Source: Arachnia propionica (GTDB lineage: Bacteria > Actinomycetota > Actinomycetes > Propionibacteriales > Propionibacteriaceae). Taken from it: 64,000 nucleotides of DNA. Made by a program: the position numbers and the translations under genes. Below, in pieces: positions 32,092-43,323 of this stretch. The DNA lies in the NCBI RefSeq assembly GCF_003932785.1, contig NZ_RQYT01000010.1, positions 1 to 64,000 on the forward strand, written 5' to 3'. Every line of letters begins with the position of its first letter. Position 1 is the first letter of the stretch. The notes below the pieces were generated by a model, which did not search any database, was not told where the DNA came from, and saw only the letters and a program-made list of their open reading frames with translations.

Positions 32092-34758
32092 ATGTCCGCC
32101 CAGCTCTACGCACTCGGTCGCTGGTGTCACCGCCACGCCCGGACCACGCTGCTGGCCTGGCTGGCCGTCCTCGTCGTCCTCGGGGGACTGGCCATCGGGT
32201 TCAGGGGCCAGTTCGAGGACGTGTTCAAGATCCCCGGCTCCTCCTCCCAGGTGGCCATCGACAAGCTCCGGATGACCTTCCCCCAGGGCGCCATGACCCA
32301 AGGCATGATGATCTTCGTCGCCGAGGAGGGGCACCGCGTCGACGAGTTCCGCGACGTCATCGAGCGCGCCGTCACCCAGCTCGAGGGCCTCGACTTCGTG
32401 GACTCCGCCACGTCCCCGTGGAACGAGTTCATCACCGACCTCATCTCCGATGACGGCCGCGCCGCCATCGTCGTCCTGCTCGCCGATCTCGCCGGCCCCG
32501 CCACCCCCGACCAGCTCCACCAACTGACGGCGGTCGCCGACGGGGTGCGCGGCCAGCTGCCGCCGGGCGCCACCGTCGACATGGGCGGGCAGGTGTTCAA
32601 CATCGAGCTCCCCGAGATCAGCCCCGTCGAGGGCATCGGCCTGGTCGTCGCCTTCGTCGTGCTCACCCTGGTGCTCGGCTCCCTCGTCGCCGCAGGGCTG
32701 CCGGTCGTCACCGCCGTCGCCGGGGTCGTGGTGACGATGGCCGTCCTCCTGCTCGTCGCCCGCATCTCCCCGATCACCTCGACCACCCCGATGCTCGCGC
32801 TCATGCTGGGGCTCGCCGTCGGCATCGACTACGCCTTGTTCATCCTCTCCAGACACCGCGACCAGCTGCGGGAGGGCATGGCCCCGGAGGAGTCGACGGC
32901 CCGCGCCATCGGGACGGCGGGATCCGCCGTCGTCTTCGCGGGACTCACCGTCTTCATCGCCCTGCTGGGGCTCGGGGTCTCCGGCATCCCGTTCCTCACC
33001 ATCATGGGCATCTTCGCGGCACTCGGCGTCGTCGCCGCCGTCGTCATCGCCCTGACCATGCTGCCCGCCCTCATGGGGCTCATGGGGGAGCGGATGCGGC
33101 CCAGACCACGACATCGACCCGAACACGCGGCCCCCGGGCGTCCCTCCTCCTACCGCTGGTGGGTGGGGATCGTCACGAGGCGCCCCGTCGTCGTGATCCT
33201 CGCCGTCGTGGCGGTGCTGGGCGCGCTCACCGTCCCCGGGCTGCGGCTCCACTCCGCCCTGCCGAACTCGGGCCATCACGCCCCCGACGCCCCCGACCGC
33301 ATCACCTACGACCTCATCGCCCGGCACTTCGGCGTGGGACGCAACGGGCCACTCGTCGTGACCGCCGACATCATCGGCTCCACCGACCCGCTCGGCCTCG
33401 TCGAGGATCTCAAGCAGGACATCCTCACCGTGGAGGGGGTCGCCGCGGTCCCGCTGGCCACCCCCAACCGGAACGCCGAGGTCGCCATGATCCAGGTGGT
33501 CCCCACGACCGCCTCCGACGACCCCGCCACCGCCGACCTCGTCCAGGCCCTGCGCGACCGGCACGACGAGTGGCTGCAACGCCACGACGTCGAGACCGCC
33601 GTGACCGGGATGACCGCCCTGCAGATCGACGTCGCCGACCGTCTCGCCAAAGCGCTGCTGCCGTTCGGGCTGCTCGTCGTGGGGCTGTCCCTGGTGCTCC
33701 TGGCCGCCGTGTTCCGGTCCGTGTGGGTGCCGGTGAAGGCCACCGTCGGGTTCCTGCTGTCGTTGGGCGGGGCCTTCGGGGCGACGGCGCTGGTGTTCAA
33801 CGACGGCTGGTTCAAGGAGATCGTCAACTTCGAACGGGGCATGCCCGTCATCTCCTTCCTGCCGATCCTGCTCATGGGCATCCTCTTCGGGCTGGCCATG
33901 GACTACGAGGTGTTCCTCGTCAGCCGCATCCGGGAGGAGTACGTCCACGGCAAACCCCCGTTGGAGGCCATCCGCGACGGCTACGTCGCCTCCGGCCGGG
34001 TGGTGGTGGCCGCCGCCGTCATCATGTGCGCCGTCTTCGCCTTCTTCGTGCCCGGCGGCATGGCGTCGATCAAGCAGATCGCCTTCGCCCTGGCCGTCGG
34101 GGTGGCCCTCGACGCCTTCCTCATCCGGATGACCTTCGTCCCCGCCGTGCTGGCCCTGCTCGGGGAGCGGGCATGGTGGCTGCCCCGCTGGCTGGACCGG
34201 GTGCTGCCGACCTTCGACGTCGAGGGCGAGGTGCTGTCCCGTGAACTCGGCATGGCCGACTGGCCGGGCACCGATCACGTCCTCCACGCCGAGGACCTGG
34301 AGGTGGCCGGGCTCGTGCCGCCGACGAGTGTCGCGCTGAGCCGCGGCAACGTCGTCGGCATCGCCGGCCCCGTCGCCACCCGCACCGGAACCGCCCTCGT
34401 GCTGTCCGGGCGGCTCGGGGCGACGGGAGGTCGCGCCCGGGTCGCGGGCCAGTTGCTACCGGGGGCCGAGTCGGCCGTCCACCGTCGCACCGGGTTCATC
34501 GACCTGGCCGGGGAACGCGACGTCGAGGCCGCGCTGGCGCGTGCCGTCGTCAAACCCGGTTCCGTGACCTTCATCGACTCGGTGGAGTGCGTGAGCACGA
34601 CGGAGGGGCGCCGCCTCCTCGACGCGCTCATCGACCGCACCCGGGCCGACGCCGACGCCGCACTGGTGCTGTGCGCCAGCCATGAATCCTTCCTCGACCC
34701 CCTCGACCTCGACGGGGTCCTCGATGCCGCCCCACCACGAGACAGGAGCCTGCGATGA
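32092..34758 (+). CDS. MMPL/RND-type transporter with C-terminal NTPase-like domain
   Basis: 888 aa. Two RND-like halves, each with one helix, an extracytoplasmic domain and five helices (LAWLAVLVVLGGLAIGFRG; LVVAFVVLTLVLGSLVAAGL; ILLMGILFGLAMDYEVFLVS). The last ~160 residues resemble a small ABC ATPase that lost its P-loop: VVGIAGPVATRTGTALVL stands where Walker A should be, lacking GK(S/T), then GATGGRARVAGQLLPG and SVTFIDSVECVSTTEGRRLL in the Walker B/D-loop position. MMPL proteins export lipids or other envelope compounds using the proton gradient. ATG 32092 was chosen where the cytoplasmic tip begins. The stop overlaps the YhgE ATG by 4 bp. Confidence 0.87.
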   Translation: MSAQLYALGRWCHRHARTTLLAWLAVLVVLGGLAIGFRGQFEDVFKIPGSSSQVAIDKLRMTFPQGAMTQGMMIFVAEEGHRVDEFRDVIERAVTQLEGLDFVDSATSPWNEFITDLISDDGRAAIVVLLADLAGPATPDQLHQLTAVADGVRGQLPPGATVDMGGQVFNIELPEISPVEGIGLVVAFVVLTLVLGSLVAAGLPVVTAVAGVVVTMAVLLLVARISPITSTTPMLALMLGLAVGIDYALFILSRHRDQLREGMAPEESTARAIGTAGSAVVFAGLTVFIALLGLGVSGIPFLTIMGIFAALGVVAAVVIALTMLPALMGLMGERMRPRPRHRPEHAAPGRPSSYRWWVGIVTRRPVVVILAVVAVLGALTVPGLRLHSALPNSGHHAPDAPDRITYDLIARHFGVGRNGPLVVTADIIGSTDPLGLVEDLKQDILTVEGVAAVPLATPNRNAEVAMIQVVPTTASDDPATADLVQALRDRHDEWLQRHDVETAVTGMTALQIDVADRLAKALLPFGLLVVGLSLVLLAAVFRSVWVPVKATVGFLLSLGGAFGATALVFNDGWFKEIVNFERGMPVISFLPILLMGILFGLAMDYEVFLVSRIREEYVHGKPPLEAIRDGYVASGRVVVAAAVIMCAVFAFFVPGGMASIKQIAFALAVGVALDAFLIRMTFVPAVLALLGERAWWLPRWLDRVLPTFDVEGEVLSRELGMADWPGTDHVLHAEDLEVAGLVPPTSVALSRGNVVGIAGPVATRTGTALVLSGRLGATGGRARVAGQLLPGAESAVHRRTGFIDLAGERDVEAALARAVVKPGSVTFIDSVECVSTTEGRRLLDALIDRTRADADAALVLCASHESFLDPLDLDGVLDAAPPRDRSLR

Positions 34759-37646
34759 GACCGGAGAGCATGCACCCAGGACACCGACTCGGCTGGCGGG
34801 CCATCGCGGCGATGACGCTGCTCCCCCTCGTCGCCGTGGCGATGCTGCTCGGCGTGGGGAGGGGCAGCGAACGCCGGGCCGTCCAGGCGGCGGTGGTCAA
34901 CCTCGACAAGGCCGTCACCATCGACGGCCAGGTGGTCCCGCTGGGACGTCAGCTGGCCGCCGAGATCGTCGCCCGCGACGAGGAGGGGATCTCGTGGACC
35001 CTCGCCGACGCCGAGGACGGGCGTGCCGGGCTGGCGGAGGGCCGCTACGCCGCCGTCGTGACGATCCCTGAGGAGTTCTCCGAGGCGGCCACCTCCTTCA
35101 GCGAGAACAAGGCCGTCATCGCCCGCCACGCGACGGTGCAGGTGACGGTGTCCGCGAACTCCGCCGTCAACGACGCCGCCCTGGCGCGGGAGGTCGCGGG
35201 GATCGCGACCGACACCATCAACGCCACCGTCACGAAGTCGTATCTCGAGAACGTCTACGTCGGCTTCAACACCCTGGGGGAGCAGTTCACGCAGGTGGTG
35301 GACGGGGTCTCGACCCTGGACGACGGGGCCGCCGCCCTCAGCGGGGGCGTGTCGGATGCCGCCACGGGAGCGGAGGAGTTGACGACGGGTCTGGACACCC
35401 TGGCCGGGAAGGGCGACGAACTGTCATCCGGGGCCGGGAAGCTCTCCGACGGGGCGTCGCAGCTGAGCGACGGGGCCGGGGCCCTCGCTGAGGGCGCGGA
35501 CACCCTCGCCGACGGCACGGGCGATCTGGCCGACGGCTCCCGGCAGCTGGCGGACGGGGCGTCGTCGCTGGCCTCCGGGTCGGATGACCTGGCCGCGGGC
35601 TCCCGGCAGTTGTCCGACGGCGCGTCGTCGCTGGCCTCGGGGGTGAACCAGTTCGACCAGGGGGTGCAGCAGCTCAACGAGAAGGCCCCGAAGCTGACCG
35701 AGGGGGTCACCGCCCTGACGACCGGGGCCGAGGCGGTGCTCGGGGCGGTCCCCGACTACACCGCCGGGGCGGGGGCCGCGGTGGACGGCGTCGGGCAGCT
35801 GCGCGACGGCCTCGTCGTCCTCGACGACGGACTCAAGGGCAAGCTGGACGCGGACGCCATGGCGAAGCTGCAGACCCTCATGGATGAGCTGGTCCCGGCG
35901 CTCAAGGAGGCGCGGGGAGCGTTCACGGTGTACTTCCCGGACCGCGACCCCGCCACCGTCACCTACGAGGAGCTCGCCGCGGACGTGCAACGCCTCGACG
36001 AGCGGTTGACCGCCCTGGAGGCCACCGTCGACGCGGTGGCGGAGGGATCCGCCCCGACCCCGCCCGAGGTGGAGGAGCTGGCGAAGCGGATCATCTCGGA
36101 GTGGCAGTGCCCGGTCACCGACCCCGACCAGTGCCAGCAGCTCGGCCAGATCTACGCCCAGGGGGTCATCGACGGGATGGGCAAGGGCATCCGGTACGGG
36201 GCGGGCATCGTGCGGGACGAACTCCGCAGGAAGGATCCCCGCACCGGCATGACCCCGCTCGAGTCGGTGAGGGCCCTGTCCGGGTTGGCCCTGCGGATCG
36301 CCAAACCCGCGTTGGGCATCCGGGACCTGCTCGGCAAGGACCTGCCCGATGGTGCCGATCCGCTCGACGTGCTCCAGGCCCTGCCGACGACCATCCAGAC
36401 GGCGGTGACCGAACTCGTGGACGGCGTCGGCAAGCTGCGGTCCGGTGCGGATGAGCTCGCCACCAAGGCCGCGCCGCTGAAGGAGAACGGCCCCGCGCTC
36501 AGCGAGGGGGCGACGACGCTGCTGGAGGGGATCCGGACCCTCGGCACCGAGACGGCAGCCCTCCCGGCGGGCACCCAGGCGCTGGCCAATGGCTCGTCGA
36601 GGCTCAACGAGGGGGCCAGCTCGCTGGCGAGAGGGGCGGGCGACCTCGCCGACGGGGCCGGGACCCTCGCCTCCGGGGCCGGGAAGCTGTCGAACGGCGT
36701 CAGCACCGCCGCCGACGGAGCGGCTGCGCTGTCCGCAGGGGCCGACCGACTGTCGTCGGGGGCGGGCGAGTTGGCCGCCGGGGCGAAGGAACTGAGCGGC
36801 GGCGCGTCGAGCCTCGCCGACGGGACCGTCCAGTACGTCGACGGCGTCTCGCAGGCCGGCCGGGGTGCCGCCCAGCTCGGACAGGGGCTGATCCGGCTCA
36901 GCGACGGGGCCACGGCTCTCGCGGCCGGGGTGGACCGGCTCCACACCGAACTCTCAGGCGCCGCCAGCGAGCTGCCCACCTTCTCGGACAGCGACATCGA
37001 CACCCTCGCCGGGGTCGTCGCCTCCCCGATCGAGCGGACCGGCGGGCTCGCCGCCCCCGCGATGGTGCCGATCACGGCCCTGCTGGCGGTCGCCGCCCTG
37101 TGGCTGGGGGCGCTGCTGGCCTACGCCTTCGCTGCCCCCGTCCCGTCGGATCTCGTCACCAGCTCCCGCACCTCGGCGACGCTGTGGCTGCGCACCCTTG
37201 GGGTGCCCACCCTCATCGGGGCCGGTCAGGGGCTGGTCATCGGCCTCGTCGCGGGCATGGTGCTGCAGCTGCCGCTGGGGCGGACCCTCGGTGCGGCCGC
37301 GCTGCTGGGGCTGGTCGGGGCGTCCTTCGTGCTGGTCAACCACGCCCTCGCGGGGTGGCTCGGCAACCTCGGGCGTGGCGTCTCGGCGCTGCTGCTGGTC
37401 CTCACCGTCGGGCTGGGGCTGACCTCGGCGGTGCCGGGACTCCTGACCCAGGTGGCGGCCTGGTCCCCGCTCCACAACGGCCTGCTGCTGGTCCGGACGT
37501 GGCTCTCCCACGGGTCCGGTCTGGTGGGGCTCGGCGGCGGGGCGCTGCTGTTCGCGGCCATCGCCCTGGCCTGCTCCTACCTGGCGATCGCGGCCCGCCG
37601 TCGCCTCACGGCCGATCAGTTCCGGGCCCGTCAGGTGGAGGCCTGA
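34755..37646 (+). CDS. YhgE/Pip-family ABC-2-like membrane protein
   Basis: 963 aa. An N-terminal helix (WRAIAAMTLLPLVAVAMLLG) is followed by the conserved YhgE/Pip extracytoplasmic domain (VQAAVVNLDKAVTIDGQVVP) and two long stretches of 7-residue repeats of the type LxDGAxx/LAxGAxx (residues ~180–310 and ~560–730), which would form a long extracellular coiled structure. Five or six C-terminal helices (MVPITALLAVAALWLGALL, GAGQGLVIGLVAGMVL, LTVGLGLTSAVPGL, LFAAIALACSYLAIA) form the ABC-2-like pore. Relatives include phage-infection protein and ESX/T7-like envelope components. Translationally coupled to the MMPL gene, so the two likely act together. Confidence 0.88.
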   Translation: MRPESMHPGHRLGWRAIAAMTLLPLVAVAMLLGVGRGSERRAVQAAVVNLDKAVTIDGQVVPLGRQLAAEIVARDEEGISWTLADAEDGRAGLAEGRYAAVVTIPEEFSEAATSFSENKAVIARHATVQVTVSANSAVNDAALAREVAGIATDTINATVTKSYLENVYVGFNTLGEQFTQVVDGVSTLDDGAAALSGGVSDAATGAEELTTGLDTLAGKGDELSSGAGKLSDGASQLSDGAGALAEGADTLADGTGDLADGSRQLADGASSLASGSDDLAAGSRQLSDGASSLASGVNQFDQGVQQLNEKAPKLTEGVTALTTGAEAVLGAVPDYTAGAGAAVDGVGQLRDGLVVLDDGLKGKLDADAMAKLQTLMDELVPALKEARGAFTVYFPDRDPATVTYEELAADVQRLDERLTALEATVDAVAEGSAPTPPEVEELAKRIISEWQCPVTDPDQCQQLGQIYAQGVIDGMGKGIRYGAGIVRDELRRKDPRTGMTPLESVRALSGLALRIAKPALGIRDLLGKDLPDGADPLDVLQALPTTIQTAVTELVDGVGKLRSGADELATKAAPLKENGPALSEGATTLLEGIRTLGTETAALPAGTQALANGSSRLNEGASSLARGAGDLADGAGTLASGAGKLSNGVSTAADGAAALSAGADRLSSGAGELAAGAKELSGGASSLADGTVQYVDGVSQAGRGAAQLGQGLIRLSDGATALAAGVDRLHTELSGAASELPTFSDSDIDTLAGVVASPIERTGGLAAPAMVPITALLAVAALWLGALLAYAFAAPVPSDLVTSSRTSATLWLRTLGVPTLIGAGQGLVIGLVAGMVLQLPLGRTLGAAALLGLVGASFVLVNHALAGWLGNLGRGVSALLLVLTVGLGLTSAVPGLLTQVAAWSPLHNGLLLVRTWLSHGSGLVGLGGGALLFAAIALACSYLAIAARRRLTADQFRARQVEA

Positions 37647-38764
37647 CGGCGCGGCGCCGACAGGGAGACGGCCAGGACGAACAACGCGAGGCACACCGCC
37701 ACCGACGGGATGCGGAACATCTCGTGCGGGTAGAGCAGCGTCCGCCACCCCAGGGTGGAGATGAGCGCGGTCTGGAGCAGCAGGACGAGCCCCAGGCTCG
37801 GGTGATGGATCATGCCCACCACCGAGGCGAGGATCAGCAGGGCGGCGATCGCGACGAGGCCGGGGACGGCGGTGGAACCGACCTGGGAGGAGAGGAAGTC
37901 GCCGACCCGCAGCCGGGTGGCGAGGTCGAAGGTCTCCCACCAGCCCGCGCCGGGGAGGCCGATGTTGCCGTCGTCGTAGGTGCTCTGCTCGGCCGTGAAC
38001 CGCGAACGGATGTACAGCAGCCAGACGCCAAGCACGAGCGGACCGGCGAGGAGCGCCGGGATGGGGCGCCAATCCAGGAGAGTTCGCCTGCGGAGCCAAC
38101 GCCATGCCTCGATCATGCCGAGGGCGACGGGGACGAGGACGAGCTGCTCCTTCGTCAGACAGAGGGCGACGCCGAGGGCGGCGATCGCGAGCCAGGGTCG
38201 TCGTTCGCGGGTCCAGGCGAGCAGCAGCGCGCAGATGAGGGCCACCTGGGTGGGTTCGGTCAGGGCGGTGGTGGCGCTGAACAGCAGCCCCGGCATGAAG
38301 CAGACGAGCAGGCCCAGCCACGGCGAGGCCCCGAGCCGCCTGGCGAGGAGGGACATGAGGGCTGCGGCGGCGGCCATGGAGGCGACGCTGAGCCCCCAGA
38401 ACACCCACGGCATCGCGGCGGGCTGCCCGGCGGAGAGCAGAGCGGCGAGCCAGCCGTGGAGGGGATGGCCGTACCGGTAGGCGGCGAGGTCGATGAGGTC
38501 GTGGGCCTGCCCCGTCGCGAACGGGTCGAGGGCCATCGCGAGGTAGTAGATCCCGTCGTAGTGATCGGCGGGGACGGTGAAGTGGAATGTCGGGTCGTGC
38601 TGTGCGATGAGGGCCGCGAGGGGATCGTTCACGGCAACACTCAGCAACCGGCTGGGGTGGAAGGGGGTCGGATGGGCCGCCAGCTGGCACAGCACCGTGA
38701 CCACGGCGGCCACCAGGGCACAGACGCCGGGAGCGAGGAATCGACGACGCGGGGAGGTGGACAC
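37631..38764 (-). CDS. GT-C-like polytopic membrane protein
   Basis: 377 aa with nine or ten membrane segments. The first extracytoplasmic loop carries HYDGIYYLAMALDPFA and YRYGHPLHGWLAALL, the DG-YY pattern of mannosyltransferase-like GT-C proteins that use lipid-linked sugar donors (the AZOBR_p60025-type family is the nearest I recall). It would modify a wall glycopolymer or glycolipid outside the membrane. TATGGT-N6-GTG suggests a leaderless start. It is convergent with yhgE (16-bp overlap) and lies 34 bp after the FtsX permease gene on the same strand. Confidence 0.75.
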   Translation of the reverse strand: MSTSPRRRFLAPGVCALVAAVVTVLCQLAAHPTPFHPSRLLSVAVNDPLAALIAQHDPTFHFTVPADHYDGIYYLAMALDPFATGQAHDLIDLAAYRYGHPLHGWLAALLSAGQPAAMPWVFWGLSVASMAAAAALMSLLARRLGASPWLGLLVCFMPGLLFSATTALTEPTQVALICALLLAWTRERRPWLAIAALGVALCLTKEQLVLVPVALGMIEAWRWLRRRTLLDWRPIPALLAGPLVLGVWLLYIRSRFTAEQSTYDDGNIGLPGAGWWETFDLATRLRVGDFLSSQVGSTAVPGLVAIAALLILASVVGMIHHPSLGLVLLLQTALISTLGWRTLLYPHEMFRIPSVAVCLALFVLAVSLSAPRRQAST

Positions 38765-38798: not shown

Positions 38799-40001
38799 TC
38801 ATCGTCGCAGTGCCTCCGTCGGTTGGATACGGGAGGCCTGCCAGGACGGTTGGAGTCCGGCCAACGCCCCGACGACGAGCCCGAGCAGCGGGGCCAGGAG
38901 CGCCAACCACGGGTCCATCACCGGCGCCCAGTGCTGCGTGAGCGAGACGATGAGCACGACGAAGATCCCCACCGTCGCCCCGATGAGGCCGCCGAGGGTG
39001 CCGAGCATGGCCGATTCGGTGATGATCTGACCGAAGATGTGGATCGGTCTGGCTCCCAGGGATCGGCGCAGCCCGATCTCAGGGACCCGTTCCATCACCG
39101 CGACCAGTGTGGTGTTGGCGATGCCGACGGCTCCGATGAACAGGCACACCCCGGCCAGGATGAGCAGCAGGGTCGACAGGTCGCGGTTGACCGACTCCCT
39201 GAGCGACCTGGGGTCGGGGGGTGGCGCCACGGAGACCTGCCCGGTGTCCTGCGGGCTGATCGCCCACGGCACCTCCTGGGCGACCTGTTGGGCGGCACCG
39301 GCGCGGGTGGTGATGAGCATCGTCGCCGCGTTGTTCCCCCCGCCCTCGGGTTCCGGGTAGATCGTGAGGGCGGTCTCGGCGGGGATCAGCACCTCGCTGA
39401 GGAGTTCGGGTCGACGCTGGGTGGCGGTGATGATCCCGATCACCGTGAACGGGCGGTTGTCCAGCAGGATCGCGGGCTGCGTGCTGACGTCGGAGATGCC
39501 CAGCCGGTCGGCTGCCAGCTGGCCGAGAACCGCGACGGGAAGTTTCGCGTTGTCGTGGAAGGGATCGAGGACCCGTCCGCTGGAGACCTCGGCCTCGACG
39601 GCGTCGAACAGGCCGCTGCTGACGGCGGTGACCCGGGTGGATGTGACGGGTCGGGCCGTGGGTGTGGCCTGGATGGTCTCGACCTCGGAGATCGGCCACG
39701 AGTACCCGACGGCGGTCACCCCGTTGACCTGGCCGAGCACCTTCTCGGCAGTGGCCGGGGTGAACACCCGTTCCTTGGTGTGGTGGTCCTCGACGGTGAC
39801 GGTGGTGGCCGCCAAGGCGTCGAATCGGGCCGAGACCTGCGCCTGGGCGGTGGTGGTGAGTCCGACGACGCCGACGAGGGTGCCGACCCCCATGATGGTG
39901 CCGAGGCAGGTGAGCACGGAGCGCAGGGGCCGGGACAGCAGGGCCGCGACGGATTCCAGCAGCAGGTCCTTGAACCGCAGGTGCGAGGTGGGTGTGGTCA
40001 T
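38799..40001 (-). CDS. FtsX/MacB-like ABC permease
   Basis: 400 aa. One helix near the N-terminus (SVLTCLGTIMGVGTLVGVVG), a ~220-residue extracytoplasmic MacB-like domain (residues ~60–275), then three helices in the FtsX domain (LLLILAGVCLFIGAVGIAN, MLGTLGGLIGATVGIFVVL, ALLAPLLGLVVGALAGL) with EIGLRRSLGARPIHI between them, a typical FtsX coupling helix. Works with the ATPase encoded just upstream to move a substrate across the membrane mechanically. The ATG overlaps the ATPase stop (ATGA). Last gene of the five-gene export unit. Confidence 0.9.
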   Translation of the reverse strand: MTTPTSHLRFKDLLLESVAALLSRPLRSVLTCLGTIMGVGTLVGVVGLTTTAQAQVSARFDALAATTVTVEDHHTKERVFTPATAEKVLGQVNGVTAVGYSWPISEVETIQATPTARPVTSTRVTAVSSGLFDAVEAEVSSGRVLDPFHDNAKLPVAVLGQLAADRLGISDVSTQPAILLDNRPFTVIGIITATQRRPELLSEVLIPAETALTIYPEPEGGGNNAATMLITTRAGAAQQVAQEVPWAISPQDTGQVSVAPPPDPRSLRESVNRDLSTLLLILAGVCLFIGAVGIANTTLVAVMERVPEIGLRRSLGARPIHIFGQIITESAMLGTLGGLIGATVGIFVVLIVSLTQHWAPVMDPWLALLAPLLGLVVGALAGLQPSWQASRIQPTEALRR

Positions 40002-40669
40002 TCGGTGACCCTCCCGTCCCGGATGTCGAGGGTTCGTCCGCCGCGGGCGGCGACGGTGGGGTCGTGGGTGATGAGCATGATGGTGAGCCCGCTGGAGTGC
40101 AGGTCCTCGAGCAGGGCCAGCACGTCCAGGGTCCGTGCGGAGTCCAGGTTTCCGGTGGGTTCGTCGCACAACAGCAGGGCGGGGTTGGTGACGAGGGCGC
40201 GGGCAATGGCGACCCGCTGCCGTTCACCGCCGGAGAGCTGTGACGGCAGGGCATGGGCGCGGGCGGCCAGTCCGACCTGTTCCAGCGCGCGTTCGGCGCG
40301 TGCCGTCCGGGTGGTGGGGTCAGCCCGGTTGTAGAGCAGCGCCAGTTCGACGTTCTCGACGGCGGTGCGGTGGTTCATGAGGTGGAAGGCCTGGAACACG
40401 AATCCGATCTGCGAGCCACGCAGTCCGGTGCGGGCGTCCTCGTCGAGGGTGGTGGTGTCGACGCCACGCAGCCGGTAGGTGCCGCCGGTGGGCAGGTCCA
40501 GCAGCCCGACGACGTTGAGGAAGGTGGACTTCCCGGACCCGGATGGCCCCACCACCGTCACGAAGTCACCTTCGTTGACCGTGACGGTGGCATCCACCAG
40601 GGCGTGGACGGGTGGTGGGCCGGGGTAGGTGCGGCTGATGTGGTCGAGTTCGATGACCGGAACGGTCAT
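39998..40669 (-). CDS. MacB/LolD-type ABC ATPase
   Basis: 223 aa. Walker A VVGPSGSGKST, Q-loop FVFQAFHLM, signature LSGGERQRVAIARAL, Walker B LLLCDEPTGNLD and H-loop MLITHD are intact, so it should hydrolyse ATP. LPTGGTYRLRGVDTTTL and the short length are typical of the LolD/MacB group that drives FtsX-type permeases. Start ATG 40669 overlaps the stop of the membrane-fusion gene (ATGA), and the stop overlaps the permease start, so all three are co-translated. Confidence 0.95.
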   Translation of the reverse strand: MTVPVIELDHISRTYPGPPPVHALVDATVTVNEGDFVTVVGPSGSGKSTFLNVVGLLDLPTGGTYRLRGVDTTTLDEDARTGLRGSQIGFVFQAFHLMNHRTAVENVELALLYNRADPTTRTARAERALEQVGLAARAHALPSQLSGGERQRVAIARALVTNPALLLCDEPTGNLDSARTLDVLALLEDLHSSGLTIMLITHDPTVAARGGRTLDIRDGRVTE

Positions 40670-41835
40670 GTCGACACCCCGATGACCACCTCGTCGCCCT
40701 CGTTGATCTCGCCGGTGATCTGGACGTAGCCCTCTCCCGTGGCTCCGACGACCACCTCGACATCGCGTCGCCGGGTGTCCTTGACGACGGTCACGACGGT
40801 GCGGCCCCGGCTGTCGGTGTGGACCGCGGCCTGGGGGACGGCCAGCACGCTGCCCTCGGATGCCGCGGCGGTGACGGTGACCCGGACGCTGCTGTCGAGC
40901 CAAGTGAGTGGGAGGGGTTCCTTCGGGACGATGGTGAGGACGGTGCCTCTGCCTCCGGCCTGGCCGTCGGGCTGTGCGCTGTCCTGGCCTCCTGCGGTCT
41001 GGTCCGTGCCGGCCTCCCCACCCTCGGTCTGCGTCGTGACCGGTTGGATGGTGGCGTCGGCTGCTTCGCCGGTCAGTTCGTTGGCCAGTCGCACGGGGAC
41101 GTCCTGGCGGGCAAGTGCGGCGAGGTCCCGATCCGGGTTGGTGATGGTCACCACCAGTTCACCTGCGGCCAGCTTCAGGGATGCCTCAGCGGCGGGCCCA
41201 CCGCGTCGGGCGGTGGAACTGATCACCCTGGCGGGCAGGGAGGGAACGAAGGCCACCTCGCTGGCGGGCAGGCTGTCCTGGGCGGCGTAGCCTGCCCTGG
41301 TGTACAGCTCGGCGACGGCGGCAGCGGTGGACCTTCCGTAGAGGCCCTCGGGGTCGTCGATGGTTGCCCCCGCGGCCCTGAGTGCAGCCTGCAGCTGGGT
41401 GACCAGCGGTCCGGTGGAGCCGGTGGCGAGGTCCTCATAGGCCGGGAGTTCGCCGGGCAGGGCGAGGATCGGTCGCCCGTTGACCTCCGCCACGGCGGTG
41501 CCCGCGGCAGCGCTCTCGCCCACCTTGGCCCGCACCGCGGTGAAGATGGCTGTGGCGCTGGGGTAGGTGCGTCCCGCCAGGATGTCGACGGCCTCCGAAG
41601 CGGTCACATCGCCCCGGGTGACCACGGTGTTGGCGATCTCACGGGAGGTGACGGTGGCGGTCAGGGTGCTGGCCGGTGGGGCCTCGGCATTGGCGGCACG
41701 CTGTTCGGGGGTTGACATGAACTGCGTGGCCACCACCCCGCCGGCTGCGAAGGCCACAGCCAGCCCGACAATGTATCCGAGCAGCCGCAGCCGCCGCTGC
41801 ATCGGGGTGGAGGAGGCGTGTCTCGGCTCACCCAT
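40666..41835 (-). CDS. Membrane-fusion protein with peptidoglycan-binding domain
   Basis: 389 aa. A short cytoplasmic tip and one helix (LLGYIVGLAVAFAAGGVVA) are followed by a coiled region, a PG_binding_1-like domain (GSTGPLVTQLQAALRAAGATID, EGLYGRSTAAAVAELYTRAG) at residues ~140–185, and barrel-sandwich/beta-barrel segments (GRTVVTVVKDTRRRDVEVVV, EINEGDEVVIGV at the C-terminus). This is the MacA-like adaptor form found in Gram-positives, which would link the permease to the cell wall. Start ATG 41835 shares one base with the lipoprotein stop (TGATG). Confidence 0.88.
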   Translation of the reverse strand: MGEPRHASSTPMQRRLRLLGYIVGLAVAFAAGGVVATQFMSTPEQRAANAEAPPASTLTATVTSREIANTVVTRGDVTASEAVDILAGRTYPSATAIFTAVRAKVGESAAAGTAVAEVNGRPILALPGELPAYEDLATGSTGPLVTQLQAALRAAGATIDDPEGLYGRSTAAAVAELYTRAGYAAQDSLPASEVAFVPSLPARVISSTARRGGPAAEASLKLAAGELVVTITNPDRDLAALARQDVPVRLANELTGEAADATIQPVTTQTEGGEAGTDQTAGGQDSAQPDGQAGGRGTVLTIVPKEPLPLTWLDSSVRVTVTAAASEGSVLAVPQAAVHTDSRGRTVVTVVKDTRRRDVEVVVGATGEGYVQITGEINEGDEVVIGVST

Positions 41836-42827
41836 CAGTTCTCCTTGAGCACCTCATTGGCCTTCGCCAGCACGTCGTCGATCCTCTGCCGCTCTTCTGT
41901 GAGAGCAAGCTGATGTTCCTCGATGGCCTTGTTCTGCAGTTCGACGTTCACCTGATTGGCAACGGTGTGGTAGCCCACTTCGTTGTTGCACTCGGCCTCG
42001 GCCACGGCCAACTGGATCTCCTCCTTGGTCGGGCGCTCCTCCTCCTTCAAACCGGCCGTCGCCTTGTCCCGCTCCGTGTCATCCTTCATCCCCTGGACCG
42101 AATAGCCTCTTCCCGCCATGCAGGACACCCAGTTCTTCTCGGCTGCGACAACCTTGGGATCGGCCCCGGCTTTTTCAGAAACAGCGAACGTCAGATCCCC
42201 GGCGACCACGAAGTTGATCATGGTGCTGTTCGTGCCGTAGATCTTTTTGCGAGCATCCCCGAGGCAGCCATTGGGTGGGATCGCCTTGCCATCGATTTCA
42301 CCGGGGGATTCTGTTTGATCTTCGACGCTTTCCCCATCCTTGCTCCCAAGTAGCACGAAGATCTTTGTGGGGTCCTCTTTCTCCTTCGGTCGACTGTTGG
42401 ATGCCAGCACGGATGCTGGCAACAAGCCCGTTACCTTGGCCTGTTCAACATCGGTCAGACCATAGAGGCGGTTCCTCGCTTCGCGTTCATCTATCACCAA
42501 CTCCTCCAGAGGGCGGAGCTCCTCTCCCGGTGGGAACCCGAAATCCGCCATGCAGCGGTCAACCAAGACCTTGATGGCCGAGTCCAACTGATACCGTTCA
42601 GCCGTGGTCAGTCTGTAGGCGTCCAGCGGGAGTGGGGCGAAGAGGTCCTTCGCGTTGCGCTGAATCGCAAAGGGGTCAGCTGCGTTGTCAGTTGCGGCAC
42701 TCGTCGCCACGGATGCCTCGTCGGAGGGAGAGGGAGGGGCGGTCGGCTCAGGTGCCGGGCCGGGGCCGCCGGTGCACCCGACGGCCCCCACCGCGAGACT
42801 GATGACTGCAAGAGTCATGCGCTTCAT
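41835..42827 (-). CDS. Lipoprotein of the I36–ABC unit
   Basis: 330 aa. Signal peptide with lipobox AVGC (Cys 18), a Pro/Ser/Ala linker, then a helical, highly charged body. Four cysteines in a regular pattern (CMADFGF, NGCLGDARKK, SCMAGRGY, AECNNEVGYH) suggest two disulfides, as in several unnamed actinobacterial lipoproteins. C-terminal ~60 residues are a likely coiled coil (VELQNKAIEEHQLALTEERQ). Lies 4 bp after the I36-like gene and 1 bp overlapping the adaptor gene, so it belongs to the same export unit; it may protect the cell or hand over substrate. More AT-rich than its neighbours. Confidence 0.75.
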   Translation of the reverse strand: MKRMTLAVISLAVGAVGCTGGPGPAPEPTAPPSPSDEASVATSAATDNAADPFAIQRNAKDLFAPLPLDAYRLTTAERYQLDSAIKVLVDRCMADFGFPPGEELRPLEELVIDEREARNRLYGLTDVEQAKVTGLLPASVLASNSRPKEKEDPTKIFVLLGSKDGESVEDQTESPGEIDGKAIPPNGCLGDARKKIYGTNSTMINFVVAGDLTFAVSEKAGADPKVVAAEKNWVSCMAGRGYSVQGMKDDTERDKATAGLKEEERPTKEEIQLAVAEAECNNEVGYHTVANQVNVELQNKAIEEHQLALTEERQRIDDVLAKANEVLKEN

Positions 42828-42831
42828 CAGA

Positions 42832-43233
42832 TCAGACCCACTTCCAGGATGCGTTGTCGTTCTTGGTCAGGAACAGGTCCCTCGAGGAGTACTTTCCGAC
42901 CGTGTCGAACCCCCCTTGGTAGTAGCTGTTCTCGTAGACTCGACCATCGCGCTTCCAGCGGTTTTCGACATGGGCGGCATTGTTCCACACCTTGTATCCC
43001 CTGCCGTTGCCCTCCGTGACGAAACGGTAGTCCATGGTGCGGAAGGATGGGATCGGCACGTAGAAGTCTGCCATTGATCCCAACCCGTGGGCCTTGGAGT
43101 TGTAGTAGAAGCAGGCCTCCCCATGGTTGCACACCGCATCATAGTGTGCAGCGTTGGCCGTCTGCGTCGTCGGCATGAGGGATGCGGCCGCCAGGACCGC
43201 TGCTCCGAGGAGCGCCTTCCAACGGTTCTTCAT
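42832..43233 (-). CDS. Secreted peptidase-inhibitor I36-like protein
   Basis: 133 aa. Signal peptide ALLGAAVLAAASLMPTTQTA, cut near ANA-A. The mature ~104 residues, HYDAVCNHGEACFYYNSK with two Cys, then aromatic-rich SMADFYVPIPSF, GRGYKVWNNAAHVENR, YYQGGFDTVGKYSS, match the I36 (SMPI-like) pattern, a beta-gamma-crystallin-type fold often found as an extracellular protease inhibitor or as a toxin-like small secreted protein. CGGAGGAAAC precedes the ATG at 43233. It is the first gene of a five-gene unit with its own lipoprotein and ABC exporter parts, so it may be the exported or sensed partner of that system. Inhibitor activity is inferred only. Confidence 0.8.
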   Translation of the reverse strand: MKNRWKALLGAAVLAAASLMPTTQTANAAHYDAVCNHGEACFYYNSKAHGLGSMADFYVPIPSFRTMDYRFVTEGNGRGYKVWNNAAHVENRWKRDGRVYENSYYQGGFDTVGKYSSRDLFLTKNDNASWKWV

Positions 43234-43291
43234 TGAAGTTTCCTCCGTTTCTTGTTCCGGGCTTCCCCCCATTGGGAACCTCGTGACGCTG

Positions 43292-43323
43292 AGGTTAGCC
43301 CCCCCCCCAGAGTGGGGACGCAA
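43292..43323 (-). promoter_or_regulatory. Promoter of the I36 operon with ten-base homopolymer spacer
   Basis: Minus-strand TTGCGT (43323–43318), a 20-base spacer holding G10 (43308–43299), then TAACCT (43297–43292). A 20-base spacer is too long for good activity; losing two or three G bases would give 17–18. Confidence 0.45.

What the first reader, a model, noticed from the sequence alone, without database searches (positions are those of the whole stretch)
38799..43323. Five-gene unit joining a secreted I36-like protein to a wall-binding ABC export complex
Seen: signal-peptide I36-like gene, lipoprotein, adaptor with peptidoglycan-binding domain, MacB-type ATPase and FtsX permease, with gaps of +4, -1, -4 and -4 bp, so all five are co-translated. 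Known: MacAB-like complexes act on envelope substrates, and small secreted proteins next to such complexes can be bacteriocins or signals. Inference: the I36-like protein is the cargo, ligand or toxin of the complex and the Cys-rich lipoprotein is its immunity or receptor factor. I know of no described system with this composition.
Basis: partly seen in the sequence, partly recalled or inferred. Interest (0 to 1): 0.72.

Follow-up and report, generated by a model that had tools for sequence, protein, structure and literature searches.

The report
Crystallin-lipoprotein pair with ABC complex
A small secreted crystallin-like protein and an unnamed membrane-anchored partner protein travel together through many actinobacteria, sometimes with a wall-binding ABC complex as in this window, and look like an undescribed cell-surface defence or wall-handling system.

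Summary
The five genes and their spacing are real, but the five-gene block is not the conserved unit. The hub is the lipoprotein: no Pfam or NCBIfam match, an all-alpha model without a PDB match, four cysteines invariant in 80 of 80. Of 175 distinct relatives, 147 have an I36-like gene within 1 kb, always on the same strand; 44 have the window-type ABC trio nearby; 34 have both. Conversely, all 12 window-type FtsX genes of at least 260 bits in 118 genomes sit in an operon with this lipoprotein, 9 of them without an I36-like gene. The small protein has a betagamma-crystallin fold and is under the Pfam I36 cut-off. Relatives lacking the lipoprotein include fusions to peptidoglycan-hydrolase domains (M23, SpoIID, CHAP), which points to the cell wall. 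Export by the ABC complex is unlikely: Sec-type signal, and 109 of 147 pairs without trio. Best guess: a secreted wall-directed protein, possibly antimicrobial, a membrane-anchored capture or immunity lipoprotein, and an optional YknXYZ-like trio. Purifying selection speaks against a simple arms race. Function is unproven.

The parts
42832..43233 (-). small secreted betagamma-crystallin-fold (I36-like) protein, 133 aa, Sec-type signal peptide
   Evidence: ORF; Pfam I36 17.7 bits, under the cut-off 21.1; AlphaFold2, pLDDT 91-98 over the mature part; Foldseek to spherulin 3a 2.6e-5 and protein S 9.3e-4
41835..42827 (-). lipoprotein, 330 aa, hub of the system; lipobox Cys18 and invariant Cys92, Cys188, Cys236, Cys280
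   Evidence: no family; all-alpha, mean pLDDT 82, helical blocks up to 97; no PDB match at E<=0.001; four Cys in 80 of 80
40666..41835 (-). MacA/HlyD-type adaptor, 389 aa
   Evidence: (RND_mfp 6.9e-8, MacA C-terminal part 2e-4, both under their cut-offs)
41308..41415 (-). peptidoglycan-binding domain inside the adaptor (residues 141-176)
   Evidence: PG_binding_1 E 1.2e-4, 22.6 bits against a cut-off of 23
39998..40669 (-). MacB/FtsE-type ABC ATPase, 223 aa
   Evidence: ABC_tran 3.8e-31; best hit MacB 1.1e-65, under its whole-protein cut-off
38799..40001 (-). FtsX/MacB-type permease with MacB periplasmic core, 400 aa
   Evidence: FtsX 1.2e-18, MacB_PCD 3.7e-17

Best explanation
Shown: genes for a secreted single-domain betagamma-crystallin protein and for an all-alpha lipoprotein with four invariant cysteines form a conserved pair across actinomycetes, and an adaptor-ATPase-FtsX trio is a separate partner of the same lipoprotein; the window holds the overlap of the two. 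Inferred: the crystallin protein leaves by Sec and acts at the cell wall, because relatives of it are the N-terminal domain of M23, SpoIID and CHAP wall hydrolases. The lipoprotein, on the outer face of the membrane, binds it (or a related attacker) and so protects the producer. Where present, the MacB-type trio, tied to peptidoglycan by its adaptor, uses ATP to push the bound protein away from the membrane, as NisI with NisFEG, or YknWXYZ, do for peptides. The likeliest use is a wall-directed antimicrobial with self-protection; lipoproteins without a crystallin gene would be orphan immunity.
For: Pairing: I36-like gene within 1 kb in 147 of 175 distinct lipoprotein loci, all same strand; in the three first samples 149 adjacent hits against 5 more than 1 kb away in 1.82 Mb. 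Reverse: of 23 strong I36-like places (E<=1.7e-12) in 118 genomes, 18 lie beside the lipoprotein, 4 are fused to a wall-hydrolase domain, 1 is alone. So in that sample 18 of 19 stand-alone crystallin genes come with the lipoprotein, while 28 of 175 lipoproteins lack a detected crystallin gene: the asymmetry expected of toxin and immunity. Trio tied to lipoprotein: 12 of 12. Wall link: fusions to M23, SpoIID, CHAP, in one clade (support 0.91). Three crystallin genes with one lipoprotein (L114) and tandem pairs (L037, L081); patchy presence (9 of 39 genomes of the genus; beside the neighbouring gene in 3 of 8). In L262 two lipoproteins have a ricin-type lectin gene instead. Co-divergence of 134 pairs: Spearman 0.41, 0 of 500 permutations reach it. 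Analogues: YknXYZ protects against SDP and YknX binds peptidoglycan (passages of PMC5985334); LanI plus LanFEG (start of abstract of PMC4828448).
Against: No activity of any kind is shown. There is no general sign of an arms race: dN/dS of the crystallin gene is mostly 0.1-0.7 (123 pairs, not independent, some genomes fetched twice), and in 21 of 31 non-overlapping close pairs it is better conserved than the lipoprotein (61 of 86 pairs in all). Nine of the 12 trio-plus-lipoprotein operons have no detected crystallin gene. The co-divergence test does not remove species history. Betagamma-crystallins are not, to my knowledge, established bacteriocins. Frankia-family loci have a putative S8 peptidase gene next to the pair, which favours a protease link there. 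The nearest neighbour of the fused domains in the tree, L318, is neither fused nor beside a lipoprotein within the 1.5 kb held.
Confidence: 0.4

Rival explanations
1. Wall-maintenance module. The crystallin protein binds the producer's own peptidoglycan and targets or restrains wall hydrolases; the lipoprotein and the FtsEX-like trio sense or move it, as FtsEX controls hydrolases.
For: Crystallin domain fused to three unrelated wall-hydrolase types; peptidoglycan-binding domain in the adaptor and FtsX/MacB permease; mainly purifying selection.
Against: Patchy within the genus (9 of 39), several divergent copies in some genomes, 109 of 147 pairs without trio; no wall-hydrolase gene was recognised by eye among the 45 commonest neighbour clusters listed.
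Confidence: 0.25
2. Protease-inhibitor module. The small protein is a true I36 inhibitor kept at the surface by the lipoprotein to protect envelope proteins.
For: 35 of 56 relatives match Pfam I36 at E<=0.01; a putative S8 peptidase gene (label recalled) lies 15-122 bases after the lipoprotein in seven distinct Frankia-family loci.
Against: Window protein under the I36 cut-off; only 2 Cys in its mature part; the profile search of the PDB lists crystallins and no entry named as the inhibitor (whether that structure is held was not checked); of 30 loci chosen by best Pfam I36 score only 3 have a lipoprotein match within 1.5 kb.
Confidence: 0.12
3. Sensor. The small protein is a signal; lipoprotein and trio relay it to a two-component system, as BceAB does.
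For: Response-regulator genes occur in some loci, e.g. L043 at 660 bases and L032 at 1.8 kb.
Against: The response-regulator cluster is in 26 of the 159 loci clustered, at varied distances; none was recognised by eye beside the window operon (not searched for).
Confidence: 0.1
4. The trio exports the small protein.
For: Same operon in the window.
Against: Sec-type signal peptide; 109 of 147 pairs have no such permease within 6 kb of the stretch held.
Confidence: 0.05

Closest known systems
Gram-positive MacAB-like complexes (YknWXYZ, SpMacAB)
   Same: MacA-type adaptor, separate MacB-type ATPase and permease; YknX binds peptidoglycan and the system protects against a secreted toxin (PMC5985334 passages; PMC4887032 abstract)
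   Different: here a dedicated four-Cys lipoprotein takes part, the adaptor holds a peptidoglycan-binding domain, and a folded secreted protein stands in place of a short peptide; no fourth membrane protein like YknW is among the five genes
Lantibiotic immunity LanI (lipoprotein) plus LanFEG (ABC)
   Same: secreted antimicrobial, immunity protein and ABC complex (start of abstract of PMC4828448; that LanI is a lipoprotein and that the parts occur apart is recalled)
   Different: no modification genes among the five; MacB-type permease; lipoprotein without a match to a solved fold
Peptidase inhibitor family I36 (Streptomyces metalloproteinase inhibitor)
   Same: weak Pfam match; the inhibitor's crystallin-like fold is recalled
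   Different: under cut-off; subfamily tied to a lipoprotein and related to wall-hydrolase fusions
Microbial betagamma-crystallins (protein S, spherulin 3a)
   Same: fold and profile match
   Different: genomic context; secreted, with a lipoprotein partner
Lactococcin 972 locus
   Same: small secreted beta protein beside an ABC pair (recalled)
   Different: no Lactococcin_972 match; ATPase under the TIGR03608 cut-off

Membership tests
Peptidase inhibitor I36 (PF03995) | Pfam gathering score | tested here: not met
   17.7 bits against 21.1; relatives: 35 of 56 match at E<=0.01
Peptidase inhibitor I36 (PF03995) | inhibits a metallopeptidase | not testable with these tools
   needs an enzyme assay
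betagamma-crystallin fold | betagamma-crystallin domain structure | tested here: met
   spherulin 3a 2.6e-5, TM 0.72 on the target; protein S 9.3e-4, TM 0.76; 48 of the 50 listed matches are crystallin-type entries, the other two a fucosidase
Gram-positive MacAB/YknXYZ-like complex | MacB-type permease with periplasmic core | tested here: met
   FtsX 1.2e-18 and MacB_PCD 3.7e-17
Gram-positive MacAB/YknXYZ-like complex | MacA-type adaptor | tested here: inconclusive
   partial matches under cut-offs: RND_mfp 31.8 against 94.9 bits, MacA 20.6 against 342
Gram-positive MacAB/YknXYZ-like complex | adaptor binds peptidoglycan | tested here: inconclusive
   PG_binding_1 22.6 against 23 bits; binding itself not testable
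Lactococcin 972 system | bacteriocin-export ATPase TIGR03608 | tested here: not met
   184.5 against 254.85 bits
Lactococcin 972 system | Lactococcin_972 domain in the small protein | tested here: not met
   not among Pfam matches at E<=1
LanI/LanFEG immunity | lanthipeptide genes and immunity activity | not tested
   no search for such genes and no assay was made; the five genes include none
Known anti-phage systems (PADLOC) | system-specific proteins | tested here: not met
   at E<=0.01 only ATPase and permease similarities (best mad3 1.7e-29 on the ATPase); none for the other three proteins

The most novel reading that the evidence does not exclude
A class-wide, undescribed surface system in actinomycetes in which one lipoprotein family with a new all-alpha fold is the hub: it partners small secreted proteins of different folds (betagamma-crystallin, sometimes ricin-type lectin) aimed at the cell wall, and separately a dedicated MacB-type trio that clears them; that is, a wall-directed protein-antibiotic and immunity system not related to lanthipeptides or colicins.
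Probability: 0.3. Interest if true: 0.82.

Novelty: new variant of a known kind. Interest (0 to 1): 0.62.

Why it matters
A lipoprotein family found in 102 of 394 actinomycete genomes (E<=0.001; the weakest hits may be chance) matched no Pfam family well in 80 members scanned, no NCBIfam model in four and no solved fold, yet has two well-defined partners. It gives a testable role to genes likely to be labelled 'peptidase inhibitor I36' or 'hypothetical lipoprotein', and it links a crystallin fold to the bacterial cell wall. If it is an antimicrobial with immunity, it is a new protein class in the group that makes most antibiotics (recalled).

Tried and rejected
Rejected: ABC export of the small protein (Sec-type signal, most pairs without trio); a lactococcin 972 system; a known anti-phage system; a chance neighbourhood. 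COX17 hits of 5 of 80 lipoproteins (best E 0.0097) were taken as chance twin-Cys similarity. A two-component system as a regular part was looked for and one response-regulator cluster found in 26 of 159 loci. A calcium-binding motif was counted: [ND][ND]xx[ST]S in 8 of 56, a looser form in 39 of 56; inconclusive. A phmmer search of the PDB with the window protein or with a strong Pfam I36 relative found no crystallin and no inhibitor, so identity with the known inhibitor could not be judged that way. The I36-like profile was trained on neighbours of lipoproteins, so the adjacency counts of the relatives and class samples are partly circular; the named sample was scored with a profile trained on the other two but shares genomes with them (for example L097 and L142), and removes duplicates by sequence. 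The 60 class loci are the best place of each of 60 genomes picked by hand from the 102, mostly from the top. Reads by eye, not by a tool: signal peptides, lipoboxes in part, and labels such as S8, M48 and response regulator.
Full report
WHAT IS THERE. Five minus-strand genes lie at 43233-38799 with gaps of +4, -1, -4 and -4 bases. The first encodes a 133-aa protein with a Sec-type signal peptide, the second a 330-aa lipoprotein, then a MacA-type adaptor with a peptidoglycan-binding domain (PG_binding_1, 22.6 bits, cut-off 23), a MacB/FtsE-type ATPase and an FtsX/MacB-type permease. The small protein scores 17.7 bits against Pfam I36, under the cut-off of 21.1; the lipoprotein matches nothing in Pfam at E<=1 or NCBIfam at E<=0.1. 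The pattern scan shows no terminator-like site on the minus strand of the operon.

WHAT IS CONSERVED. A search of 96 relatives with the lipoprotein found it in 19 (9 of the 39 genomes of the genus, own included). The 21 other places were fetched in 20 stretches. The same five genes in the same order are in L032, and a diverged set in L033; elsewhere the trio may be absent while a small crystallin-like gene still lies beside the lipoprotein. A profile of 17 lipoproteins found the family in 102 of 394 genomes of the class at E<=0.001; the best place of each of 60 of these genomes was fetched. A scan of named genomes with a 13-sequence alignment gave 79 loci (of 111 that encode a relative; the best 80 are kept) in Frankia, Streptomyces, Kitasatospora, Actinoplanes, Micromonospora, Rhodococcus, Nonomuraea, Jiangella, Amycolatopsis and others. 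An I36-like gene lay within 1 kb in 15 of 20, 49 of 60 and 74 of 79 loci; all 149 such hits were on the lipoprotein's strand, 131 upstream and 18 downstream, against 5 hits further than 1 kb away in 1.82 Mb. With 20 further stretches, mostly from genomes with several copies, and after removal of duplicates by sequence, 175 distinct lipoproteins remain (window not counted): 147 with an I36-like neighbour on the same strand, none with one only on the other; 44 with the window-type permease within 6 kb (28 same strand, 16 opposite), of which 34 also have the I36-like gene; 4 with a permease of another type. 28 lipoprotein entries, duplicates included, had less than 6 kb held on one side, so trio counts are lower bounds.

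THE REVERSE TESTS. A profile of 56 small proteins searched in 118 genomes gave 23 places with E<=1.7e-12: 18 beside the lipoprotein, 4 fused to another domain, 1 alone. Of the 23, a window-type trio was seen for 2 (window, G128) and another type for 3 (G145, G149, G112); some of the 23 were seen only with 1.5 kb on either side. Weaker hits were mostly not beside a lipoprotein. Of 30 loci chosen by best Pfam I36 score, 3 had a lipoprotein match within the 1.5 kb held, so the lipoprotein-linked proteins are a subfamily, not the I36 family at large. The window's permease searched in 118 genomes gave 12 places of at least 260 bits, own included, all with the lipoprotein in the operon; 9 of these 12 have no detected I36-like gene. 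The next place (194.6 bits, G165, L277) is a permease match split over two frames, without lipoprotein or trio detected. In the genus 8 of 9 places of at least 270 bits have the lipoprotein; the ninth (L275) is a lone permease gene; a further one at 223 bits (L276) has three lipoproteins. Ten loci with more distant permeases carry, in six cases, a weak match (E 1.4e-5 to 4.3e-4) to a short lipoprotein with paired cysteine motifs, perhaps a distant cousin. The lipoprotein is therefore the hub of two overlapping modules.

THE PROTEINS. The AlphaFold2 model of the small protein (56 sequences) has pLDDT 91-98 over the mature part, and Foldseek finds betagamma-crystallins: spherulin 3a 2.6e-5, protein S 9.3e-4; a profile search of the PDB agrees (protein S 3.5e-6), while single-sequence searches found none. 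The lipoprotein model (80 sequences) is all-alpha but for two short strand bridges, mean pLDDT 82, helical blocks up to 97 and loops at 68-77, with no PDB match better than E 0.42; four cysteines are invariant in 80 of 80.

THE WALL LINK. Of the 5 strong I36-like places without the lipoprotein, 4 proved to be fused to wall-hydrolase domains, and more such fusions came from a Pfam I36 search of 296 genomes: SpoIID (L224, L226, L312, L317), M23 (L226, L228, L321) and CHAP (L309), three unrelated types of peptidoglycan hydrolase. In a tree of 163 domains nine such domains (seven confirmed by Pfam, two tandem neighbours, in L309 and L321, not scanned) form one clade (support 0.91). Its nearest neighbour is L318, a protein with no second domain and no lipoprotein match in the 1.5 kb held; its nearest lipoprotein-linked neighbours include L104, L103 and L111, which are also the window protein's nearest after L032. 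Two others carry FG-GAP repeats (L304, L305) and are remote. In L262 two lipoproteins are each preceded by a secreted ricin-type lectin instead of a crystallin (Pfam 1.9e-5 and 4.2e-7). Together with the adaptor's peptidoglycan-binding domain, this points to the cell wall.

EVOLUTION. Lipoprotein and small-protein distances of 134 pairs correlate (Spearman 0.41; 0 of 500 permutations), though species history is not removed. Close pairs show mainly purifying selection on both (123 non-independent pairs; one pair at 2.07 with dS 0.05 and two near 1.0), and the small protein is the better conserved one in 21 of 31 non-overlapping pairs, so no general arms race is seen. The gene next to the operon (37631-38764) is found in 8 of 39 congeners, own included; the module or its lipoprotein is beside it in 3 (window, G011, G010) and not found beside it in 5, so the module comes and goes.

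HOW IT MAY WORK. The small protein has a Sec-type signal and 109 of 147 pairs have no trio found, so the trio is not its general exporter. MacB-type machines work outside the membrane by mechanotransmission, and in Gram-positives YknXYZ protects against the cell's own SDP toxin and YknX binds peptidoglycan (passages of PMC5985334; abstract of PMC4887032). Lantibiotic producers protect themselves with LanI and LanFEG (start of abstract of PMC4828448; that LanI is a lipoprotein is recalled). By this analogy the crystallin protein is a wall-directed agent, the lipoprotein its membrane-anchored catcher, and the trio an optional pump. The asymmetry (18 of 19 strong stand-alone crystallin genes with the lipoprotein, 28 of 175 lipoproteins without crystallin) fits toxin and immunity; the purifying selection and the trio operons without crystallin fit a wall-maintenance role as well.

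NOVELTY. Ten paper searches in the open-licence PMC library listed no paper that appeared to describe the pair (listings and abstract starts seen; passages of one paper and the abstract of another read); subscription papers and preprints were not searched. The parts are of known kinds; the lipoprotein family and the combination are not described in what I could search.

Noticed in passing
L224, L226, L228, L309, L312, L317, L321: I36-like crystallin domains fused N-terminally to SpoIID, M23 or CHAP peptidoglycan-hydrolase domains.
   Followed up: yes
L262:4869-5477 and L262:11276-11872: Secreted ricin-type lectin genes stand where the crystallin gene usually stands, before two lipoproteins of the family.
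   Followed up: partly
Frankia-family loci, e.g. L141, L142, L147: A secreted protein that looks like an S8 peptidase (label recalled from its sequence) lies 15-122 bases after the lipoprotein on the same strand in seven distinct loci.
   Followed up: no
L285, L286, L290, L293, L294: Short lipoproteins with repeated C[ML]-x3-G motifs beside a different actinobacterial adaptor-ATPase-FtsX trio, weakly similar to the hub lipoprotein.
   Followed up: partly
L031:7252-8262: Congener with the lipoprotein alone at the same neighbour gene; no lipobox found in that frame, no crystallin gene, no trio, an M48-like peptidase gene (label recalled) upstream.
   Followed up: partly
L126:6676-6990 and L196:7953-8324: Other small secreted proteins of no Pfam family beside lipoproteins that lack a crystallin gene.
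   Followed up: no
window 34755-37646: Large membrane protein with many LADGA-type repeats, possibly a YhgE/Pip-like protein (label recalled), whose end overlaps that of the convergent gene 37631-38764.
   Followed up: no
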